NCBI RefSeq assembly: GCF_029633825.1 | Contig: NZ_CP090642.1 | Location: 868,001-932,000 of the forward strand | Length of the DNA: 64,000 nucleotides | Source of the DNA: Burkholderia contaminans | Lineage (GTDB): Bacteria > Pseudomonadota > Gammaproteobacteria > Burkholderiales > Burkholderiaceae | Direction of reading: 5' to 3' | In this document: positions 35,236 to 43,506 of the stretch, piece after piece | Layout of the letters: each line of letters begins with the position of its first letter | Position numbering within the stretch: the first letter of the stretch is position 1 | The notes under the pieces: model-generated | The model's database searches: none | The model's input: the letters and a program-made list of their open reading frames with translations, nothing else | Told to the model about the DNA's origin: nothing | Position numbers and translations under genes: made by a program

Positions 35236-35685
35236 TCACCTGCGCGCCTGCGCATCGTCCTCGACATCGGCGACGTCGGCCGGGAAGCGGTGCTGGCCGA
35301 AACTCAGGATCAGCACGCCGACGGCGAGCAGCACGATCCCGACGGTCGTCATCAGCATCCGCTCGGGGCTGTCGGTTGCCCCGCGCAGTATCAGGTCGCG
35401 CGCGAGCGACGTCATCGCAATGAACAGCGGAAACCGCACGGGCAAGCGGCCGAGCCGCAGGTAGCGCACGTCCATCGCGAGCACCTCCAGATACAGGAAC
35501 ATGAGCAACAGGTCGGTCAGCGACACCTCGCCCGCGAGCACGACCTTCCACGCTTCCTGCGCCATCGCGAACGCGGTCGCGAGCCCGATCACGATCAGGC
35601 CGGCCAGTTCGGCCGCGTGCAGGAAATGGCCGAAGCGGCGGCGTATGCGCTCGGCGGGCGAGCAGGGAATGGTGGTCGTATTCAA
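35236..35685 (-). CDS. psiE: PsiE family phosphate-starvation-inducible membrane protein
   Basis: A 149-residue protein with four membrane helices (AAELAGLIVIGLATAFAMAQ; SLTDLLLMFLYLEVLAMDVR; RFPLFIAMTSLARDLIL; MLMTTVGIVLLAVGVLILSF) and the typical PsiE segments. No ATG suits the length; I place the start at TTG 35685, which overlaps the stop of the upstream LysR-type gene as TTGA and would be read by translational coupling, because no ribosome site is seen. PsiE function is unknown beyond phosphate-regulated expression in E. coli. Confidence 0.75.
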   Translation of the reverse strand: MNTTTIPCSPAERIRRRFGHFLHAAELAGLIVIGLATAFAMAQEAWKVVLAGEVSLTDLLLMFLYLEVLAMDVRYLRLGRLPVRFPLFIAMTSLARDLILRGATDSPERMLMTTVGIVLLAVGVLILSFGQHRFPADVADVEDDAQARR

Positions 35686-36062
35686 GGTGACAGTCGCTGT
35701 GTTGAGGCGTGAGCGGCGCCGGGTGGCGGCGGGAACGTCGCATCGCGCGCGGCGGCATGCACGGTATCGTGCGCGTCGGGCCTGTCCGGCATGCCGGGCA
35801 TGTGCGCGCCGGCCGCACCGACCGCCTGCTCGACCGCGGACAGCGTCCGCCGGCAGCACACGTGGAACGCGTCGCCCGCATCGGTGCAGGCGACGTCGTC
35901 GTGGTCCCGGCACAGCAGCAGGCGGCAGCCGAGATACCGTTCGAGGCCGTCGATCCGTTCGCTCACCTGCGCTTCGTCGAGTTGCAACTCGGACGCCGCA
36001 CCGGACAGGCCGCCATGCTCGACCACCGCGACATACACACGCATCGCTTCCAGCAGGTTCAT
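35682..36062 (-). CDS. LysR-type HTH-only protein
   Basis: A 126-residue protein. The first about 65 residues are a LysR-type winged helix (MNLLEAMRVYVAVVEHGGLS, GAASELQLDEAQVSERIDGL, ERYLGCRLLL, then TDAGDAF). The usual 200-residue effector domain is missing: the rest is a short helix and a Pro/Ala-rich tail. GGAG lies eight bases before the ATG at 36062. It ends in a TTGA overlap with psiE. It may be a decayed regulator or a stand-alone DNA-binding protein. Its promoter region is shared with the divergent dyp gene. Confidence 0.7.
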   Translation of the reverse strand: MNLLEAMRVYVAVVEHGGLSGAASELQLDEAQVSERIDGLERYLGCRLLLCRDHDDVACTDAGDAFHVCCRRTLSAVEQAVGAAGAHMPGMPDRPDAHDTVHAAARDATFPPPPGAAHASTQRLSP

Positions 36063-36427
36063 GATGACGCTCCTCGTGGCTGGCGCAGCGGAACCTAATC
36101 TACTGCACGCGGCACGCACGCTCAAGAGCACAGCGCCGCATGCGCCAGGAGTACAGCTGAGCGGGCGCCGGGCAAAATCCGGCCCTGTTTGACGCATTCG
36201 CATGACAGTTTGGCAATTCGTGTTCCAAAGACCGGCCGAAGCTGCTAGATTGCTTGCTCGACGAGGTGACGCGGTGCGGGCAGGTCACGCGCCCCGTGCG
36301 GCCGCCACCGCTGCGGCCCGTTGCGCGATGCCCGCGCGGCGTCCTTCATCCGCATGACACAAAGAGAACCGTCGCATGACACAGTTCAACCGTTCGCCAG
36401 CGCGCGCCACGGCACTTCCGTCCCGAC
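36063..36427. other. 365-base divergent region before dyp
   Basis: Between the HTH-only gene and dyp. It contains TGACAGTTTGGC at 36203-36214 and a short upstream ORF (36376-36435). An extended -10-like TGCTAGATT occurs near 36240, but no matching -35 was seen, so I do not call a promoter. Confidence 0.4.
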
Positions 36428-36435
36428 ATGACTGA
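36376..36435 (+). CDS. possible upstream ORF overlapping the dyp start
   Basis: ATG at 36376 (AAAGAGA upstream) begins MTQFNRSPARATALPSRHD and stops at 36433-36435, inside the first codons of dyp (ATG at 36428). It could couple translation of dyp, whose own start has no clear ribosome site. Nineteen residues only, so this is tentative. Confidence 0.3.
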   Translation: MTQFNRSPARATALPSRHD

Positions 36436-37489
36436 CCGGCAGCCCACGATGCAGACACCTCCCCCGCTCTCCCAGAACGTTCACAGCACGACCACGCGCA
36501 GCGCGATCTTCCTCGTGGCGACGATCAATCCCGGCGCCGATCACGCCGACACGATCCGCTCATGGTGCGGCGACATCGCCGCGCTCGTGCGCTCGGTCGG
36601 CAAGCGCGTGCCGGGCGGCAACCTCACCTGCGTATGCGGCTTCGGCGCCGACGCGTGGGATGCGCTGTTCGGCAACCCGCGCCCTGCCGCGCTGCATCCG
36701 TTCCGTGAATTCGGCGCGGGTCAGCGCGTCGCGGTCGCGACGCCGGGCGACATCCTGCTGCACATTCGCGCGGAAGCGATGGACCTGTGCTTCGAACTCG
36801 CGACGCAGTTGCTCGGCGCGCTCGGCGATGCCGTCACGGTCGTCGACGAGGTGCACGGCTTCCGCAATTTCGACCAGCGCGCGATGATCGGCTTCGTCGA
36901 CGGCACCGAGAACCCGGAAGGCCGCGAGGCGGTCGACTTCACGGTGATCGGCGACGAAGACGCGGAATTCGCGGGCGGCAGCTACGTGATCGTGCAGAAG
37001 TACCTGCACGACATGGCCGGCTGGAACGCGCTCGCGGTCGAGACGCAGGAGCGCATCATCGGCCGCACCAAATTGTCCGACATCGAGCTTGCGCCGGACG
37101 TGAAGCCGTCGTGTTCGCACAGCTCGCTGACCACGCTCGACGAGGGCGGCCAGGAAGTGAAGATCCTGCGCGACAACATGCCGTTCGGGCGCCCGGGCGC
37201 GGGCGAATTCGGCACCTACTTCATCGGCTATGCACGCTCGCCGGCGCCGATCGAGCAGATGCTCGAGAACATGTTCGTGGGCCGCCCGCCCGGCAATTAC
37301 GACCGCCTGCTCGACTACAGCCGCGCGGTTACCGGTTCGCTGTTCTTCGTGCCGTCCGCCGACCTGCTCGAGGCGCTCGCCGATCGCCCGGCGCCGGCCA
37401 CCGATGCCGCGGCGCCGGAACCGGCGTCATCCGCGCCGCATCGCGACGGTTCGCTGAAAATCGGCTCGCTGAAAGGCGTGCCGTCGTAA
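36428..37489 (+). CDS. DyP-type peroxidase, encapsulin cargo
   Basis: A 353-residue dye-decolourising peroxidase (haem enzyme). The GxxDG motif is GFVDGTENP with D158; the proximal haem ligand is H231 (CSHSSL); the distal Arg is R248 in ILRDNMPFG. After residue 310 comes a Pro/Ala-rich linker ending in DGSLKIGSLKGVPS; SLKIGSLK (342-349) is the known encapsulin cargo-loading peptide of family 1 DyP systems. The enzyme should therefore be packed inside the shell encoded at 41698-42513. In most DyP systems the shell gene follows directly; here 4.2 kb, including an inserted island, separate them. An ATG at 36449 is an alternative start. Confidence 0.95.
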   Translation: MTDRQPTMQTPPPLSQNVHSTTTRSAIFLVATINPGADHADTIRSWCGDIAALVRSVGKRVPGGNLTCVCGFGADAWDALFGNPRPAALHPFREFGAGQRVAVATPGDILLHIRAEAMDLCFELATQLLGALGDAVTVVDEVHGFRNFDQRAMIGFVDGTENPEGREAVDFTVIGDEDAEFAGGSYVIVQKYLHDMAGWNALAVETQERIIGRTKLSDIELAPDVKPSCSHSSLTTLDEGGQEVKILRDNMPFGRPGAGEFGTYFIGYARSPAPIEQMLENMFVGRPPGNYDRLLDYSRAVTGSLFFVPSADLLEALADRPAPATDAAAPEPASSAPHRDGSLKIGSLKGVPS

Positions 37490-37495
37490 CGCCCA

Positions 37496-37991
37496 ATATT
37501 AATGAAGATCTTGTGCATAGATCCGTGTATTACGGCCCCTTGCACACGATAAATACATCCGTTTTAACGCACGCCATCAGATCATCATTGGCTCGCGAGA
37601 GGCGTAAACTAGCACCTTACCAATCCTTCTCTGGCAACGACGGCCTTGATAAGGTGCAATCGTGTCCGACCTCTATCTGCTTCTAGTTTTCAATCTACGC
37701 TACGAGTAGTTATGCGAATCACCAGATGGAATACGCGAAGCAGAGAACTACTAAGTACAACATGCAACTCGATTCGACAGATTCATGACGCGCTGCAGGT
37801 CTTCTCAAGAATCGCAGGTGCGATGTCAATGTAGATCGAGCCATCCGGGCACCTCATACCACCAAATCATCGGCTAATATACGGATACGACACACGGAGA
37901 CGGCCAGCCTCGCTTCGCAGCCTTGTACAGTTTGGCTTACGCGTGTGAGTTCATGACGAATGGCACCGGAAAACGGTATTACGGGGACTCA
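37496..37991. other. gene-free left part of the island
   Basis: About 500 AT-rich bases with no credible gene. ACAGTTTGGC at 37927-37936 repeats part of the 12-mer found before dyp and before the MocR gene. It probably contains the promoter of the DUF262 gene. Confidence 0.4.
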
Positions 37992-39671
37992 ATGTCACAA
38001 GTTCAAGAGATTAGCATCCAGCTCGACGGAATCAGCAACGTATTGAAAACAAGGCGGTTTCGGGTTCCGGCATATCAGCGATCGTACGCTTGGGAAGCAG
38101 AACACGTCGAAGCGTTGCTCACGGACGTAAACGATGCTATCAAATCCAAGGAAAAGGAGTACTTCCTCGGGTCGATAGTTGTAACCGGTCCCGTCGATCG
38201 TCGTTACGAGGTGGTTGACGGCCAACAACGTCTCACGACTGTCAGCTTACTGATTTCCGCTATTCGAGACCGTTTCCGGGAAGAGGGTGACCAGGAAGCT
38301 GAGAAATCCATTCGCGATGATTTTCTTGCCAACGTTGATCGAAAAACAAAGGAAAGAGAGCCAAAATTAGCTCTAAACGAAGTAGACAATGAGCTTTATC
38401 AAGAATTAATCGAGGACCACTCTTCCATAGACTCGTCGCGCTACCCACGGCAATCGCACAAGCGCCTTCTTGCCGCATCAAAATGTATGCGCGGATATAT
38501 TGATGATCTATGCGCACAATCAGCCGATTCAGAAGAAACATTGCACGAATGGCTCGATTACCTGGAAACCAATTTAAAAGTAATTTTGGTAACCGCACCA
38601 GACGACAGTAACGCGTTCGTGATATTCGAAACGCTAAATGATCGCGGCCTAGAACTTGCAATCTCCGATCTACTGAAAAATTACTTATTCCATCGATCAA
38701 GTGACAAAATAGAAGAAACAAAAAATCGATGGCTAACCATGGTCGCAACCCTTGAAAGCGCATCCGAAGACCCTCTAATTGTCACATATCTTCGCCATTT
38801 TGCCATGTCGAAGTATGGACTTGTCAGAGAAAAATAATTATTCGGAATCATTAAGCGAAAAGTAACCAGCAAGAAGCTCGCACTTCAATTTTCAACAGAG
38901 CTAAGCAATACAGCAAAAACTTATGCCGCTTTAATCAATACTGATCACGACCTTTGGCGAGAATATGACATTGCAACTCGAGAAGCGGTCTATGCAATGA
39001 ACCTTCTTGGAATGGTTCAAGTTCGCCCGCTTTTGCTTGCAATCCTAGATAAATTCGAGCCCAAAAAAGTATCAGCAGCATTTAAAAAGCTTGTTGCGGT
39101 CGCCGTAAGATTCCAAATCGTTGGTGGCGCAGGCGGTGGCACCTTAGAGCGAATCTACAGCGATGCAGCAAAAGGGGTTACAGAGGGAAAGCTCAATTCA
39201 ATCCAAGATATATTGAAAGGATTTACCACTCTACCGACTGACCCCACATTCATTGCAGCGTTTTCCGTAGCTACAGTATCGAAGCAGTCACTTGCCAGAT
39301 ACTACCTCCGGATGCTTGAGAGTGGTGTGCCTGGCGCCTCCGGCGAGCTTGTGCCAAGCACCGACGCTGGTCAAGTTAATTTAGAGCACATTCTCCCCAT
39401 CAATCCGTCTGAAAAATGGATGAAGACATGGTCACTTGACGATGTCAAAGCTTATCAAAAGCGGTTAGGCAACATGGCGATCATGGGAGCAAAAATCAAC
39501 AGCACCATTGGGAACGAGGAATTCTCAAAGAAAAAATCCAGTTTCTCAACTTCAGCATTTCATTTTACGAACGGGGTAAGCAAGCTTAGCACTTGGAACA
39601 CGGATGCGGTTGAAAAACGTCAAGCTGCGATGGCCGAAATTGCAGCCAAGGTTTGGTCAATCAAAGGGTAG
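37992..39671 (+). pseudogene. GmrSD-like DUF262/DUF1524 protein, interrupted by a stop codon
   Basis: The start ISIQLDGISNVLKTRRFRVP, then PAYQRSYAWE, EYFLGSIVV and VVDGQQRLTTVSL are the DUF262 (GmrS/ParB-like NTPase) motifs; the C-terminal half has VNLEHILPINPSEKW, RLGNMAIMGAKIN and GNEEFSKKK, the DUF1524 HNH (GmrD-like) nuclease. Such proteins are type IV-like restriction or anti-phage enzymes. In the same frame a TAA stands at 38835-38837, after LVREK, before LFGIIKRKV; a single G-to-T change of GAA would explain it. Read through, the protein is 559 residues, a normal length. The ATG at 37992 has GGGGA upstream. As written, only the DUF262 part (281 residues) would be made. Confidence 0.82.
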
Positions 39672-39948
39672 CCGGTGAAAGTTGCGCTTTTCGGCCGCCC
39701 CCGAAAATGTCGCATTGAATTCGAGAGACCGGGACTGCTTACTTGACTACGCAGTCCCGTCCCAATTCCCCGTCTGCTAGAAGACGTGAGCATCCTGCTC
39801 GGATCCGAAACGTACGAATGAGAATCCGCGCCGCTACGTCGGCTGGAGCGTAGTGACTTGGTTTTCCAATCGTTACGACCCAAAGATGTCACCACCTCAA
39901 GTATGAGATCGCGCTACGTACAAACACAGGCGGACAGAAGATAAGCCC
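39672..39948. other. intergenic region with a stem-loop inside the island
   Basis: No gene. CGGGACTGC (39730-39738) and GCAGTCCCG (39751-39759) form a perfect nine-base stem with a 12-base loop, 58 bases after the DUF262 gene stop. There is no T run after it, so it is a terminator only if the stem suffices. Confidence 0.5.
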
Positions 39949-40608
39949 ATGAATTACGACACCCTTCCAGAATGGGAAAGAAAAAGAAGAATCTCAATGC
40001 AACGAATCGGCCAACATGAAGCCGGGCACCACGTCGTTGCTCGAAGGCTGGGCTTCATGATGGGCCCGCTCGAACTTCGTTTCCAGGGCAGCGGGCATGA
40101 GACGGAAGATGTACCGCACGACGGAAGCGCCACAGTCATACTTCATCGTCCCGTCGGCACGACAGATGCAATTTCTGGATATCTCAGAGATCGGGTCCAA
40201 GTGCTATTCGCGGGGGTACTCGCAGAATCGCTCTCAAACGGTCAAGTTCAAATCGAGATCGCTCGGAAGGCTGAAATTGAAACCGCAGTATCAGATTTTG
40301 CTAAAGCAGCTGAGCATCTTGAGCTTCTGGTCAACCTGCAATGTGCATCAAATCCTGCATTATGTGAACCGGCAGCCCGCGATCGAGCGGTAAAATTACT
40401 ACGCTGCGAACTTTATGACACTACAAAACAACTTGTTATCGCAAACGCAGATGTGATAGAGAAGATCGGGAGCCATCTCTCCGACAAAGCACGGTCGAAC
40501 TTCGCAAGATGGGCCACAGTCGAAGCGTCCGAATTTGACGATCTCTTCGTTTCAACCCCTCAGATAATCAATGCCTCCGGGAACGACTTTCCAGAAGGCG
40601 CAGTCTGA
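39949..40608 (+). CDS. FtsH/M41-peptidase-like protein without AAA domain
   Basis: A 219-residue protein. Near the N-terminus is QHEAGHHVVARRLGF, with HEAGH matching the zinc-binding HExxH helix of M41 (FtsH) peptidases. Further on, DRVQVLFAGVLAESLSNGQV resembles the AGRxAExLxFG helix of that family, and a helical C-terminus follows. There is no ATPase domain and no membrane segment. It may be a stand-alone metalloprotease or a degenerate zinc-binding protein; similar free M41-like domains occur in mobile DNA. Codon use is AT-richer than the chromosome. Only a weak ribosome site is seen before ATG 39949. Activity is an inference from the motif. Confidence 0.6.
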   Translation: MNYDTLPEWERKRRISMQRIGQHEAGHHVVARRLGFMMGPLELRFQGSGHETEDVPHDGSATVILHRPVGTTDAISGYLRDRVQVLFAGVLAESLSNGQVQIEIARKAEIETAVSDFAKAAEHLELLVNLQCASNPALCEPAARDRAVKLLRCELYDTTKQLVIANADVIEKIGSHLSDKARSNFARWATVEASEFDDLFVSTPQIINASGNDFPEGAV

Positions 40609-40635
40609 GCAGATTTACTTTCTCAAGATATCACC

Positions 40636-40857
40636 ATGACGAAGTATCAGACCCAATCTGTCGGGCACGTCGACACCTACGGCGCAGATGCCGAACATCG
40701 ACGAATTCAAGTGCCGCTCGCTTCGGTACTGCACGTGTTCAGTGAAGGCTTCAATGTCGACGGGAACGAACTGCTGTCTTACGCTGCGACGGTGGATACC
40801 GAAACTGGCCAAGTCGTTTTTGATCTTAGGATGAAACGGAGAGGTCCGCTCGACTAA
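40636..40857 (+). CDS. hypothetical small island protein
   Basis: A 73-residue soluble protein (YGADAEHRRIQVPLASVLHV, NELLSYAATVDTETGQVVFD) with a basic end, RMKRRGPLD. No family recognised. It follows the HEAGH-type gene by 27 bases and is followed by a perfect hairpin terminator at 40889-40927, which supports plus-strand transcription. Confidence 0.5.
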   Translation: MTKYQTQSVGHVDTYGADAEHRRIQVPLASVLHVFSEGFNVDGNELLSYAATVDTETGQVVFDLRMKRRGPLD

Positions 40858-40888
40858 ATCACACAGCAATTTATTCGTTTCATCATCC

Positions 40889-40927
40889 GGTTGGCAGCCG
40901 GTGTTAGGCACAGGCTGCCAACCTTTT
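40889..40927 (+). terminator. rho-independent terminator in the island
   Basis: GGTTGGCAGCC (40889-40899) and GGCTGCCAACC (40913-40923) make a perfect 11-base stem around a 13-base loop, followed by TTTTC. It would end the island transcription unit just before the dyp scar. Confidence 0.75.
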
Positions 40928-40972
40928 CAACGGCAAAAAGAGTTGCTACGTTGGACCTACCGACGCAGGTGG

Positions 40973-41047
40973 CCACGAACACGTTCTCGAGTATCTGTTT
41001 GATCAGTGCCGGCGAGCGCGCATATCCAGTGATATAGCTGCCGAATT
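40973..41047 (-). repeat. inverted, diverged dyp fragment
   Basis: On the minus strand this reads EFGSYITGYARSPAL then IKQILENVFVA, homologous to EFGTYFIGYARSPAP, IEQMLENMFVG of the intact DyP (dyp bases about 37204-37281). It is clearly diverged in sequence, so it is not a simple copy of the neighbour. It meets the direct copy at the palindrome GCCGAATTCGGC (41040-41051). Confidence 0.75.
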
Positions 41048-41195
41048 CGGCAATTACGACCGCCTGCTCGACTACAGCCGCGCGGTTACCGGTTCGCTGT
41101 TCTTCGTGCCGGCCGCCGATGCCGCGGCGCCGGAACCGGCGTCATTCGCACCGCATCGCGACGGCTCGCTGAAAGGCGTGCCGTCGTAACGCCCA
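41048..41195 (+). repeat. direct, partly deleted copy of the dyp 3' end
   Basis: This segment corresponds to dyp bases 37291-37495, nearly identical but with two in-frame deletions: 42 bases in the Pro/Ala linker and 15 bases that remove IGSLK from the cargo-loading peptide (HRDGSLKGVPS remains). It includes the stop codon and CGCCCA after it. It has no start codon of its own and is a remnant. Confidence 0.85.
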
Positions 41196-41697
41196 TCGCC
41201 AAAGTCCGGCGCGCCCACCGCGCGCCGGGCGAGACGCGCGGCCATGCGATGAACGCCCCTCACTTGTCGTGAAGCTTCAATAGGCTGCGTCTATGATTCA
41301 TCCGGGCACGGTCCGTGCAACTGAATACCGCCGAGCCCCGGCGTCCGGGAACCCTGCCGGATGAATGTTCGCAAGAATGCACGACACGCGATGGGCCGTC
41401 GGCCGCCAACAGGTTCGGCGCGCCATCGGGCCCGGCCCGCGCGACGCGAGCGCCGGCGCGCCCCCGGGGTATCGTCATCCGGTCGCACCGTTCAGCGCAT
41501 ACGCTCCGTCGCCCCACACGCGAATTGCAGAACAGTTGCGCCGCCGCAGGATGTCGTCCGGATTTGTGCTGCAGCGGTGTCAATAGAGCCTGCTAATATT
41601 GATTTTCGTCCGCGATCGGCCCGCCGGGCTCAGCGCAGTCCGTCAGCCGATCGGCCCACCATGAAGTGTTTCCGCTGACGTGAGGCAACCCAAACCC
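41196..41697. other. region between the dyp remnant and the encapsulin gene
   Basis: About 500 bases without a credible gene. CCGGCGCGC (41206-41214) and GCGCGCCGG (41220-41228) form a perfect nine-base stem right after the dyp remnant, probably the ancestral dyp terminator (no T run). An extended -10-like TGCTAATAT lies at 41591-41599, about 100 bases before the encapsulin ATG, and may be its promoter. Confidence 0.45.
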
Positions 41698-42513
41698 ATG
41701 AATAACCTGCACCGCGAACTCGCCCCGATCTCGTCCTCCGCCTGGGAGCAAATCGAGGAGGAAGTGGCACGCACGTTCAAACGATCCGTGGCCGGCCGCC
41801 GCGTCGTCGATGTCGACGGCCCCGAGGGGCCCGAGCTGTCGGCCGTCGGCACCGGGCACCTCGTCGACGTCGCCGCCCCGCGCGAGCTGGTGAATGCGCG
41901 GCTGCGCGAAGTCCGCACGATCGTCGAGCTGACGGTGCCGTTCGAGTTGAGCCGCGATGCGATCGACAGCGTCGAGCGCGGCGCGCGCGACGCCGACTGG
42001 CAACCGGCGAAGGACGCCGCGCAGCGGCTCGCGTTCGCCGAGGACGGCGCGATTTTCGACGGCTACCCGGCCGCCGGCATCGTCGGTATCCGCGAAGGCA
42101 CGTCGAACCGCAAGCTCACGCTGCCGGCCGACGTCAGCGCATATCCCGACGCGATCAGCGACGCGCTCGAAGCGCTGCGGCTTGCCGGCGTCGACGGCCC
42201 GTACTCGGTCGTGCTCGGCTCGGATGCGTACACGGCACTCAGCGAAGCGCGCGACCAGGGCTATCCGGTCCTCGGCCACATCAAGCGGATCGTCAGCGGC
42301 GAGATCATCTGGGCGCCGGCGATCAGCGGCGGCTGCGTGCTGTCCACGCGCGGCGGCGATTACGAGCTGCACCTCGGGGAAGACGTATCGATCGGCTACA
42401 CGAGTCATACCGACAAGGTCGTCCGCCTGTACCTGCGCGAAACGTTCACGTTCCTGATGCTGACGAGCGAAGCATCGGTGGCCGTGGCGCCGCAGGGCAA
42501 CACGGCAGCCTGA
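41698..42513 (+). CDS. family 1 encapsulin shell protein
   Basis: A 271-residue HK97-fold shell protein. The start MNNLHRELAPISSSAWEQIE, then VARTFKRSVAGRRVVDVDGP and LSAVGTGHL are the family 1 encapsulin (linocin/CFP29) N-terminal signature; the E-loop region (VRTIVELTVPFELSRDAIDS) and the end ETFTFLMLTSEASVAV follow. Subunits assemble into an icosahedral compartment of about 25-30 nm that takes up cargo bearing the SLxIGSLK peptide, here the DyP peroxidase at 36428-37489. The gene is intact, but is now preceded by a dyp remnant and an inserted island and so must use its own promoter or read-through. Confidence 0.95.
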   Translation: MNNLHRELAPISSSAWEQIEEEVARTFKRSVAGRRVVDVDGPEGPELSAVGTGHLVDVAAPRELVNARLREVRTIVELTVPFELSRDAIDSVERGARDADWQPAKDAAQRLAFAEDGAIFDGYPAAGIVGIREGTSNRKLTLPADVSAYPDAISDALEALRLAGVDGPYSVVLGSDAYTALSEARDQGYPVLGHIKRIVSGEIIWAPAISGGCVLSTRGGDYELHLGEDVSIGYTSHTDKVVRLYLRETFTFLMLTSEASVAVAPQGNTAA

Positions 42514-42615
42514 TCGCGGTTGCCCGCGCGATGCCGGCCCGGCGTCGCGCGCGAGCGGCCGCACCGCCGGCCGCATGTTCGTCGCCGATCAAACCCATCT
42601 TGCATGGAGTGTGTG

Positions 42616-42885
42616 ATGAGCGAGTCGAATGAGGCATTGCAGGCGCTGCAGGCGTCGGTCGATCACCTGAGGCAGGCGGTCGATGCGAACGCGAGCAGCC
42701 ACGCCGGCGACACCGCCGTGCTGTTCACCGTCTTGTCGCTGGTCCTGGCGGAGTTGCCGCCCGACACGCGCAACCTGATCGAGGATTCGTTCTCCGTCTG
42801 GGCCAATGGCCTGCCGGATGCGGCACTGTCAACGGACGTGAAGCGGATCGCCCGGCAGCGGCTTGCGATGACGCTCCCGGACTGA
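42616..42885 (+). CDS. hypothetical small helical protein after encapsulin
   Basis: An 89-residue protein: ALQALQASVDHLRQAVDANA is a likely coiled coil, then VLFTVLSLVLAELPPDTRNL and a helical end. GGAG at 42606-42609 precedes the ATG at 42616. No characterised family and no cargo-loading peptide, so there is no evidence that it belongs to the nanocompartment. It may be co-transcribed with the shell gene (gap 102 bases). Confidence 0.6.
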   Translation: MSESNEALQALQASVDHLRQAVDANASSHAGDTAVLFTVLSLVLAELPPDTRNLIEDSFSVWANGLPDAALSTDVKRIARQRLAMTLPD

Positions 42886-43506
42886 CCGCGGCACGCCACG
42901 GTTGCGCCGCGTCCGGCCCGGACCGTGCAACCCGCCCTCGCCTTCGGCCACCCCACACGCATCGTCCGCGGTGCGTGCGTGGTCGACCCTGGCCGCTCGC
43001 GGCGCGCGAGCCCTGCGGCGCTGCCGTCGCGCCTCCCCACCCGCGGTGCCTGTCACCTCCCGGCAACGGGCGACCTGCGCGCCGATGTCGCACCGCGATC
43101 CGTTCGCGTTCCACCCGCTTCCGCTTCCTGCCATCACACGCTGCGTACGCCGCGCACGCCCGTGCCGCCGTGCGCGCACCCGTCTGTACTCCTTGCCGCC
43201 CGTGCGCGCGCGCATGCGAGGGTGCAATTCAGGGCCGGGCCGGTGCGGAACTGTGCCTTGGATAGCCTGCGCCGATTCGCTATTTTGAACGCAGTCGAAG
43301 CGATGCCGTGGGCTCCTCCCGGCACGCACGCTTGCCGCCCTGACCGCGACCGTGCACGACGCCGACGCGCGCTGCATGACAGCACCGGTGCCGCCCGCGG
43401 GCCGCCGTGCCGCGCGTCGTGCGTTCGTGGTCGGCATGCGCCAAGCGCCGCACCGCATCGGGACTTCACCCTTCGACCCACTTTCACCGACAGGAGCCAG
43501 ACCACC
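42886..43506. other. 621-base region upstream of the Clp gene
   Basis: No credible gene; the frame open into the clp gene is not protein-like here. A good promoter candidate is at 43258-43286. Confidence 0.5.
43258..43286 (+). promoter_or_regulatory. promoter candidate for the Clp disaggregase gene
   Basis: TTGGAT (43258-43263) and TATTTT (43281-43286) with a 17-base spacer fit sigma-70. The same stretch also reads CCTTGGA and CCGATTCG, near the heat-shock (sigma-32) layout. The leader to the ATG at 43507 would be about 215 bases. Confidence 0.4.

What the first reader, a model, noticed from the sequence alone, without database searches (positions are those of the whole stretch)
36428..42513. 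DyP-encapsulin nanocompartment operon split by an inserted island
The DyP peroxidase ends in the encapsulin cargo-loading peptide SLKIGSLK, and a family 1 encapsulin gene lies at 41698. In known DyP systems these genes are adjacent. Here about 3.5 kb of AT-richer foreign DNA with a restriction-like gene, an HEAGH protease-like gene and a small ORF with a terminator lies between them. Cargo and shell are both intact, but they are probably no longer on one transcript, so the stoichiometry of the compartment may have changed. A defence-type cargo inside a nanocompartment locus is unusual.
Basis: partly seen in the sequence, partly recalled or inferred. Interest (0 to 1): 0.85.

Follow-up and report, generated by a model that had tools for sequence, protein, structure and literature searches.

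The report
Nanocompartment gene pair split twice
In this Burkholderia the genes for a peroxidase and for the protein shell that encloses it, which overlap in most relatives, were first pushed apart by old mobile-element debris in a common ancestor and later by a 3.5-kb block of foreign DNA, so cargo and shell are probably now made from separate messages.

Summary
In detail: an intact DyP gene (36428-37489, ending GSLKIGSLKGVPS) and an intact family 1 encapsulin gene (ATG 41698-42513) flank an AT-rich island that none of 52 other encapsulin-bearing Burkholderia genomes has there. In 42 of those 52, dyp and enc overlap by 8 or 4 bases; in the other 10, one clade with the window, they already lie 443-1034 bp apart. 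The longer of these spacers carry a GIY-YIG gene and a truncated IS481-family end, and those aligned share a conserved block before enc. The 3469-bp island came later, on the window's branch, with a 205-bp duplication of the dyp 3' end; the enc-side copy is decaying. Island genes: a GmrSD-like restriction gene with an in-frame stop, a stand-alone FtsH-type protease domain, a small ORF, a terminator-like hairpin; none looks like capsule cargo. New result: in overlapping species the last loading-peptide glycine codon is GGA in 41 of 42 rows (about 1% elsewhere in dyp), giving AAAGGA ten bases before the shell ATG; none of the spacer rows keeps it. Loading-peptide codons probably double as the shell gene's Shine-Dalgarno site.

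The parts
36428..37489 (+). dyp: DyP-type peroxidase, intact, C-terminal cargo-loading peptide GSLKIGSLKG
   Evidence: codon tables
37291..37495 (+). left copy of the dyp 3'-end repeat (205 bp), part of the intact dyp plus 6 bases after its stop
37496..40964 (.). inserted AT-rich island, 3469 bp, absent from this site in 52 relatives and single-copy in the own genome
37992..39671 (+). GmrSD-like (DUF262/DUF1524; PADLOC HEC-06/Orf5-like) gene, interrupted by an in-frame stop at 38835-38837; start inferred from the P. phymatum relative
39949..40608 (+). stand-alone FtsH-type (M41) metalloprotease domain, HEAGH motif, no AAA+ part
40636..40857 (+). small ORF, 73 aa, unknown
   Evidence: only a DUF2460 match below the Pfam cut-off
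40889..40923 (+). terminator-like hairpin followed by TTTT, near the island's right end
   Evidence: not listed by the stricter pattern scan
40965..41049 (-). inverted, diverged (83%) copy of dyp 37204-37289
41048..41195 (+). right copy of the dyp 3' end, decaying: 42-nt and 15-nt deletions, loading-peptide repeat reduced to one SLKG
41204..41230 (+). GC-rich hairpin that follows the dyp stop in island-free relatives such as L144 and L008, now on the enc side
41269..41385 (+). truncated left end of an IS481-family element (terminal repeat and first transposase codons)
41518..41697 (+). conserved block upstream of enc (mean pairwise identity 0.82-0.92 per 20 bases among 11 genomes; contains TGCTAATAT at 41591-41599 and GTGAGG), putative enc promoter/leader
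41683..41697 (+). relic of the original dyp 3' end just before the enc ATG
41698..42513 (+). enc: family 1 encapsulin shell protein, intact

Best explanation
This is a functional-looking DyP-encapsulin locus that was uncoupled in two steps. Ancestral state (shown by comparison): dyp and enc overlap (ATGAATAA is both enc start and dyp stop), and the loading-peptide codons CTG AAA GGA place an AAAGGA ten bases before the enc ATG; inferred: one mRNA serves both genes and shell translation is tied to the end of cargo translation. Step 1 (shown): in one Burkholderia clade a spacer of up to 1 kb, with a GIY-YIG gene and a truncated IS481-family end, came to lie between the loading-peptide codons and the enc start; dyp has a new short tail (V/I-P-S stop), enc keeps a relic of the old junction behind its own conserved upstream block, and the GGA codon is gone. 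Step 2 (shown): on the window's own branch a 3.5-kb island entered directly after the dyp stop, with a 205-bp duplication of the dyp 3' end, so dyp stayed whole and the displaced copy on the enc side decays. Most likely working state (inferred): dyp is transcribed without enc, perhaps into the island as far as the hairpin at 40923; enc is transcribed from its own leader at about 41518-41697; the loading peptide still directs DyP into the shell. The uncoupling of step 1 made step 2 tolerable.
For: Of 52 relatives with this encapsulin, 42 overlap (39 at -8, 3 at -4) and 10 have a 443-1034-bp spacer; the window has 4208. On a dyp+enc tree of 54 distinct rows all 11 spacer rows (window and the 10 relatives, L105 with partial dyp) are one side of a branch, one change, SH-aLRT 89, outgroup overlapping (10 spacer rows of 53). 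Nearest relatives L144 and L145 are empty sites: the window's left flank to 37495 and right flank from 41048 map contiguously and overlap by 211 bp on L144. The two repeat copies share alleles absent from eight aligned relatives, so the duplication is late. IS481 end. GIY-YIG. Block before enc more conserved than the rest of the spacer. Relic of the old dyp end before enc: 0 of 388 control positions match as well at 12 nt. GGA at the last loading-peptide Gly: 41 of 42 overlapping rows, 0 of 10 spacer rows; of 30 conserved Gly columns in dyp only two, both in the loading peptide, reach 20% GGA. Among 51 rows from L034-L085 (mostly other genera) 49 have GGA.
Against: No transcript data. The sigma-70 scan found one promoter-like site (39549-39521, minus strand) in 36100-42700, against 3.1 expected, and none before enc; its terminator scan listed 4 sites against 7.1 expected and not the 40889-40923 hairpin, whose tail has only four T. 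The enc promoter rests on conservation and an extended -10-like TGCTAATAT (motif recalled, no -35). Clade support is 89, below the tool's 95 mark. The loss of GGA is one event on one branch and cannot be tested statistically as a change. The other loading-peptide Gly is also GGA in 22 of 42 overlapping rows, which an exact SD position does not need. In spacer rows the loading-peptide end still pairs with the anti-SD (-3.2 to -5.1 kcal/mol, -10.2 in L009, against -5.0 to -8.2 in overlapping rows), and L020 has a weak enc ribosome site (-2.4). Gene conversion between the repeats could make an older duplication look late.
Confidence: 0.72

Rival explanations
1. One reading: the island itself split an otherwise joined dyp-enc operon.
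For: The island is unique to this genome at this site and lies between the genes.
Against: Ten clade members without the island already have a 443-1034-bp spacer; where aligned it is homologous with window 41196-41697.
Confidence: 0.05
2. dyp, island genes and enc still form one long operon driven from upstream of dyp.
For: The four island ORFs described lie on the same strand as dyp and enc. The hairpin that follows dyp in relatives is displaced to the enc side. The pattern scan does not list the 40889 hairpin as a terminator.
Against: A strong hairpin with T-run at 40889-40923 and a second GC-rich hairpin at 41204-41230, and a conserved enc leader that predates the island.
Confidence: 0.12
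3. The locus is decaying: step 2 silences one partner and the compartment is on its way to loss.
For: The GmrSD-like gene is interrupted, the right dyp copy is decaying, and 12 of 65 Burkholderia genomes have no match to this encapsulin.
Against: dyp and enc are intact and 97-99% identical in protein to those of the nearest relatives; the enc leader is conserved.
Confidence: 0.15
4. The repeats and the island are an assembly artefact.
For: Repeats of 150-205 bp can confuse short-read assembly.
Against: The window lies in contig C3 of a 7-contig, 9.4-Mb assembly; the island occurs once in the genome; the protease protein cluster has 7 member sequences on 5 contigs, context unknown; the two repeat copies differ by 3 substitutions and two deletions.
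Confidence: 0.03
5. GGA in the loading peptide is kept for a reason other than ribosome binding, such as a translational pause or mRNA structure.
For: The other loading-peptide Gly codon is also GGA in 22 of 42 overlapping rows.
Against: The last codon is GGA in 41 of 42 overlapping rows, lies at a usual SD distance, and is not GGA in any spacer row, where enc no longer follows.
Confidence: 0.25

Closest known systems
Family 1 DyP-encapsulin core operon (PMC8346489, passages read)
   Same: DyP cargo gene with C-terminal loading peptide, family 1 shell gene downstream on the same strand; the largest family 1 class (1,505 systems).
   Different: The genes are 4.2 kb apart with an island and older debris between. 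PMC7925596 (passages read) states that native systems are always cargo-then-shell operons under a single promoter; PMC8229669 (passages read) calls the operons tightly packed, which suggests strong translational coupling.
Secondary encapsulin cargos (M. xanthus EncC/EncD; M. tuberculosis BfrB, FolB; PMC8229669, passages read)
   Same: Cargo and shell can be produced from separate loci and still assemble.
   Different: There the extra cargos lie elsewhere while the core cargo stays in the core operon; here the core cargo itself has been uncoupled, in place.
IS481-family insertion sequences
   Same: Terminal repeat and first transposase codons match complete Burkholderia copies.
   Different: About 120 bp of the left end remain in the window; no transposase and no right end were found in the spacer.
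GmrSD / DUF262-DUF1524 restriction proteins (PADLOC HEC-06, Orf5)
   Same: GmrSD_N and GmrSD_C both match; an intact 559-aa relative lies on pBPHY01 of P. phymatum.
   Different: Interrupted by an in-frame stop.
FtsH (M41) protease domain
   Different: No AAA+ domain in the 219-aa ORF; no Pfam match at E 0.01.

Membership tests
Family 1 encapsulin | shell protein of the Linocin_M18/encap_f1 family | tested here: met
   PF04454 E 6e-95; NF041155 equivalog above cut-off
Family 1 DyP-encapsulin system | DyP cargo with C-terminal loading peptide | tested here: met
   TIGR01413 above cut-off; GSLKIGSLKG end, same motif in relatives
Family 1 DyP-encapsulin system | cargo gene directly upstream of shell gene in one operon | tested here: not met
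   4208 bp apart against overlap in 42 of 52 relatives; transcription itself not tested
Family 1 DyP-encapsulin system | DyP is physically loaded into shells | not testable with these tools
   needs purification of particles
IS481-family insertion sequence | terminal repeats at both ends and a DDE transposase | tested here: not met
   left end only in the spacer; a remnant, not an element
GmrSD-type restriction protein | DUF262 plus DUF1524 domains in one open frame | tested here: not met
   both domains match but a stop lies between them
M41 (FtsH) peptidase | HExxH zinc site in the FtsH protease fold | tested here: met
   [not shown]
M41 (FtsH) peptidase | AAA+ ATPase domain in the same chain | tested here: not met
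   219-aa ORF whose modelled part aligns to the protease domain alone; no Pfam match
Site-specific integrative island | integrase gene and short att direct repeats | tested here: inconclusive
   no integrase or transposase among the four plus-strand island ORFs tested; other ORFs not scanned; the flanking repeat is 205 bp of dyp with a decaying copy

The most novel reading that the evidence does not exclude
The cargo-loading peptide of DyP is written in codons that also form the ribosome-binding site of the shell gene, so the targeting signal of the cargo and the translation signal of the shell are one stretch of DNA. Insertions at this junction survive only if each gene keeps its own copy of its part. 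This clade is a natural experiment in which the lock was broken once (GIY-YIG/IS481 debris), the codon constraint was released, and a second, larger insertion with a duplicated loading-peptide end followed.
Probability: 0.5. Interest if true: 0.62.

Novelty: new variant of a known kind. Interest (0 to 1): 0.47.

Why it matters
Published descriptions (passages of PMC7925596 and PMC8229669) treat encapsulin core cargo and shell as one tightly packed operon. Here a whole Burkholderia clade has the two uncoupled, with dyp and enc open, beside close relatives that kept the overlap. That makes an open question directly testable: does cargo loading need synthesis from one message, or is the loading peptide enough? 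Double use of loading-peptide codons as a ribosome site would help to explain why the arrangement is so rarely broken, and would matter when loading peptides are recoded for engineering.

Tried and rejected
Island proteins as capsule cargo: the GmrSD-like C-terminus KVWSIKG resembles KIGSLKG, but the P. phymatum relative ends the same way, and a distant homologue (34%) from G007, a genome without a match to this encapsulin, ends LARRTWDVI (compared by eye), so it looks like the family's own end. Whether P. phymatum has an encapsulin was not checked. Phage origin of the island: no DNA match in 50,697 phage records; one plasmid record of 72,556, over the GmrSD gene only. A second copy of the island in the genome: none. 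Rfam, 36000-43000: nothing at gathering scores. Island genes in relatives: GmrSD N-terminal piece in 4 of 65 Burkholderia genomes at E 1e-20, own included, the other three at 31-34% identity; C-terminal piece at E 1e-30 only in the own genome of 398 of the family; protease gene at E 1e-3 in 8 of 398, own included, five of the others weaker than E 1e-4. Source of the inverted dyp piece: best match 85.5% to any fetched relative, so donor DNA and old decay cannot be told apart. enc leader as a copy of the dyp leader: nothing better than E 0.5. Promoter/terminator scan: no more sites than chance. The PDB sequence search for the protease listed mainly histocompatibility chains (30 sequences, best E 0.007), taken as spurious. 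Exact 34-nt dyp-end pattern in viral contigs: none. Literature: the listings, and passages of PMC8346489, PMC8229669 and PMC7925596, showed no split core DyP-encapsulin operon and no loading-peptide codons as ribosome site; the library lacks most subscription journals.

Rows dropped: one search used distinct dyp+enc rows with near-complete dyp (53 rows, 10 with spacer; L105 and other spacer loci with short flanks left out); one search added L105 with partial dyp (54 rows, 11 with spacer; one locus per spacer genome). One search deduplicated on the dyp end (41 overlapping, 11 spacer, 51 others from L034-L085, some of which are labelled Burkholderia in their records) and skipped eight loci without a usable dyp upstream. 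One search deduplicated on the matched dyp (42 and 10). L061 has encapsulin but no dyp match.
Full report
What is there. Between them the G+C content drops to 0.41-0.54 against mostly 0.65-0.70 outside.

Anatomy of the gap, left to right. After the dyp stop six further bases belong to the dyp-side repeat, and the island begins at 37496. It holds a GmrSD-like gene (37992-39671) with an in-frame stop at 38835 (the stretch after the stop continues in frame), an ORF with HEAGH (39949-40608), a 73-aa ORF (40636-40857) and a strong hairpin followed by TTTT (40889-40923). At 40965-41049 lies an inverted piece of dyp (37204-37289; 83% identity over 77 nt), directly followed by a second, direct copy of the dyp 3' end (41048-41195). 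Against the 205-bp left copy this right copy has 3 substitutions in 148 aligned bases and deletions of 42 and 15 bases; the latter removes one of the two SLK repeats of the loading peptide. Then come about 500 bp of resident spacer and enc.

The split is older than the island. Of 65 Burkholderia genomes 53, own included, hold this encapsulin. I measured the distance from dyp stop to enc ATG in the other 52: 39 overlap by 8 bases (ATGAATAA), 3 by 4 bases, and 10 have 443-1034 bp between the genes. A tree of dyp plus enc (54 distinct rows, loading-peptide end removed) puts the window and all 10 spacer relatives on one side of a branch (SH-aLRT 89, one change; Cupriavidus outgroup overlapping; likewise without L105). 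So one origin of the spacer is the simplest reading, and the overlap is ancestral.

What made the spacer. The 1-kb spacers (L008, aligned nearly throughout with L009, L010, L014, L105) hold a minus-strand GIY-YIG gene (Pfam just above cut-off in L008; 75% identical in G026) and, next to it, the left end of an IS481-family element: a 150-bp block that occurs in other Burkholderia genomes as the left end of copies with a 316-aa IS481 transposase. In the window the GIY-YIG gene is gone but the IS end remains at 41269-41385 (71% identity, E 2e-11). GIY-YIG genes next to a similar IS end without full transposase lie elsewhere in three other Burkholderia genomes (G021, G059, G062), so the pair may be a unit that has moved; how was not worked out. 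The last 180 bp before enc are more conserved than the rest of the spacer (0.82-0.92 per 20 bases against mostly 0.53-0.78) and contain TGCTAATAT and GTGAGG. The 10-15 bases just before the enc ATG still resemble the end of dyp of sister species: none of 388 control positions matches as well at 12 nt. I infer that the insert entered inside the last codons of dyp.

The island is later. On L144 and L145 the window's left flank (to 37495 and 37492) and right flank (from 41048) map contiguously, overlapping by 211 bp on L144. Both repeat copies share alleles that eight aligned relatives lack (for example GGTTACCGGTTCG and TAACGCCCA), so the duplication is late on the window's branch, unless gene conversion has kept the copies alike. 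The inverted piece is more diverged and closest to no particular relative; its origin is open. No integrase or transposase was found among the four island ORFs tested. Single-crossover integration of a circle carrying a dyp end, or a template switch during repair, would both leave this pattern; I cannot choose.

Loading-peptide codons and the ribosome site. In overlapping species the sequence before the shell start is, as a rule, a Leu codon (mostly CTG or CTC), AAA GGA, ten bases, ATG. The last Gly of the loading peptide is GGA in 41 of 42 overlapping Burkholderia rows (the other GGG) and in none of 10 spacer rows (nine GGC, one GGG) (with another deduplication 40 of 41 and 0 of 11). Elsewhere in dyp GGA makes up 0.9% and 0.6% of Gly codons, and of 30 conserved Gly columns only two reach 20% GGA, both in the loading peptide. 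Among 51 rows from L034-L085 (mostly other genera) 49 have GGA. Against this: the neighbouring loading-peptide Gly is GGA in 22 of 42 rows; the loss is one event; and residual pairing with the anti-SD remains in spacer rows. A phylum-wide sample of 398 genomes returned six non-Burkholderia encapsulin loci; all six were looked at: two overlap by 8 bases, one by 4, one by 1, and two lie 7 bases apart, so tight spacing is general but the exact device is not.

How it probably works. Shown: the gene order, the two insertions and their order, intact cargo and shell, the codon pattern. Inferred: dyp and enc now form separate transcription units, with the hairpin at 40923 limiting read-through and the conserved leader starting enc; DyP still loads through its own peptide. 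Two papers (passages read) state the norm: native systems are always cargo-shell operons under one promoter (PMC7925596) and tightly packed, which suggests translational coupling (PMC8229669).

Verdict. Observation confirmed; interpretation partly supported. The island is an ordinary kind of acquisition in an unusual place; the clade-wide uncoupling and the loading-peptide/ribosome-site overlap are the more interesting result.

Noticed in passing
L008:8182-8735; L169, L170, L171: A GIY-YIG gene next to a truncated IS481-family left end occurs both in dyp-enc spacers and elsewhere in three other Burkholderia genomes, as if the pair moves together.
   Followed up: partly
[not shown]
   Followed up: partly
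35682-36203 (minus): ORF with only a LysR-type helix-turn-helix match (PF00126) and no effector domain found, next to and divergent from dyp.
   Followed up: no
41280-41294: ATAG-N7-CTAT, resembling an OxyR/LysR-type site (motif recalled), lies inside the IS481 terminal region and is kept in several spacer genomes; probably part of the IS end.
   Followed up: no
41048-41195: Both deletions in the decaying dyp copy (42 and 15 nt) are in frame, so the fragment stays open; they lie between short direct repeats.
   Followed up: partly
L131, L133, L134: Three Burkholderia genomes use a 4-base ATGA overlap instead of the 8-base ATGAATAA.
   Followed up: no
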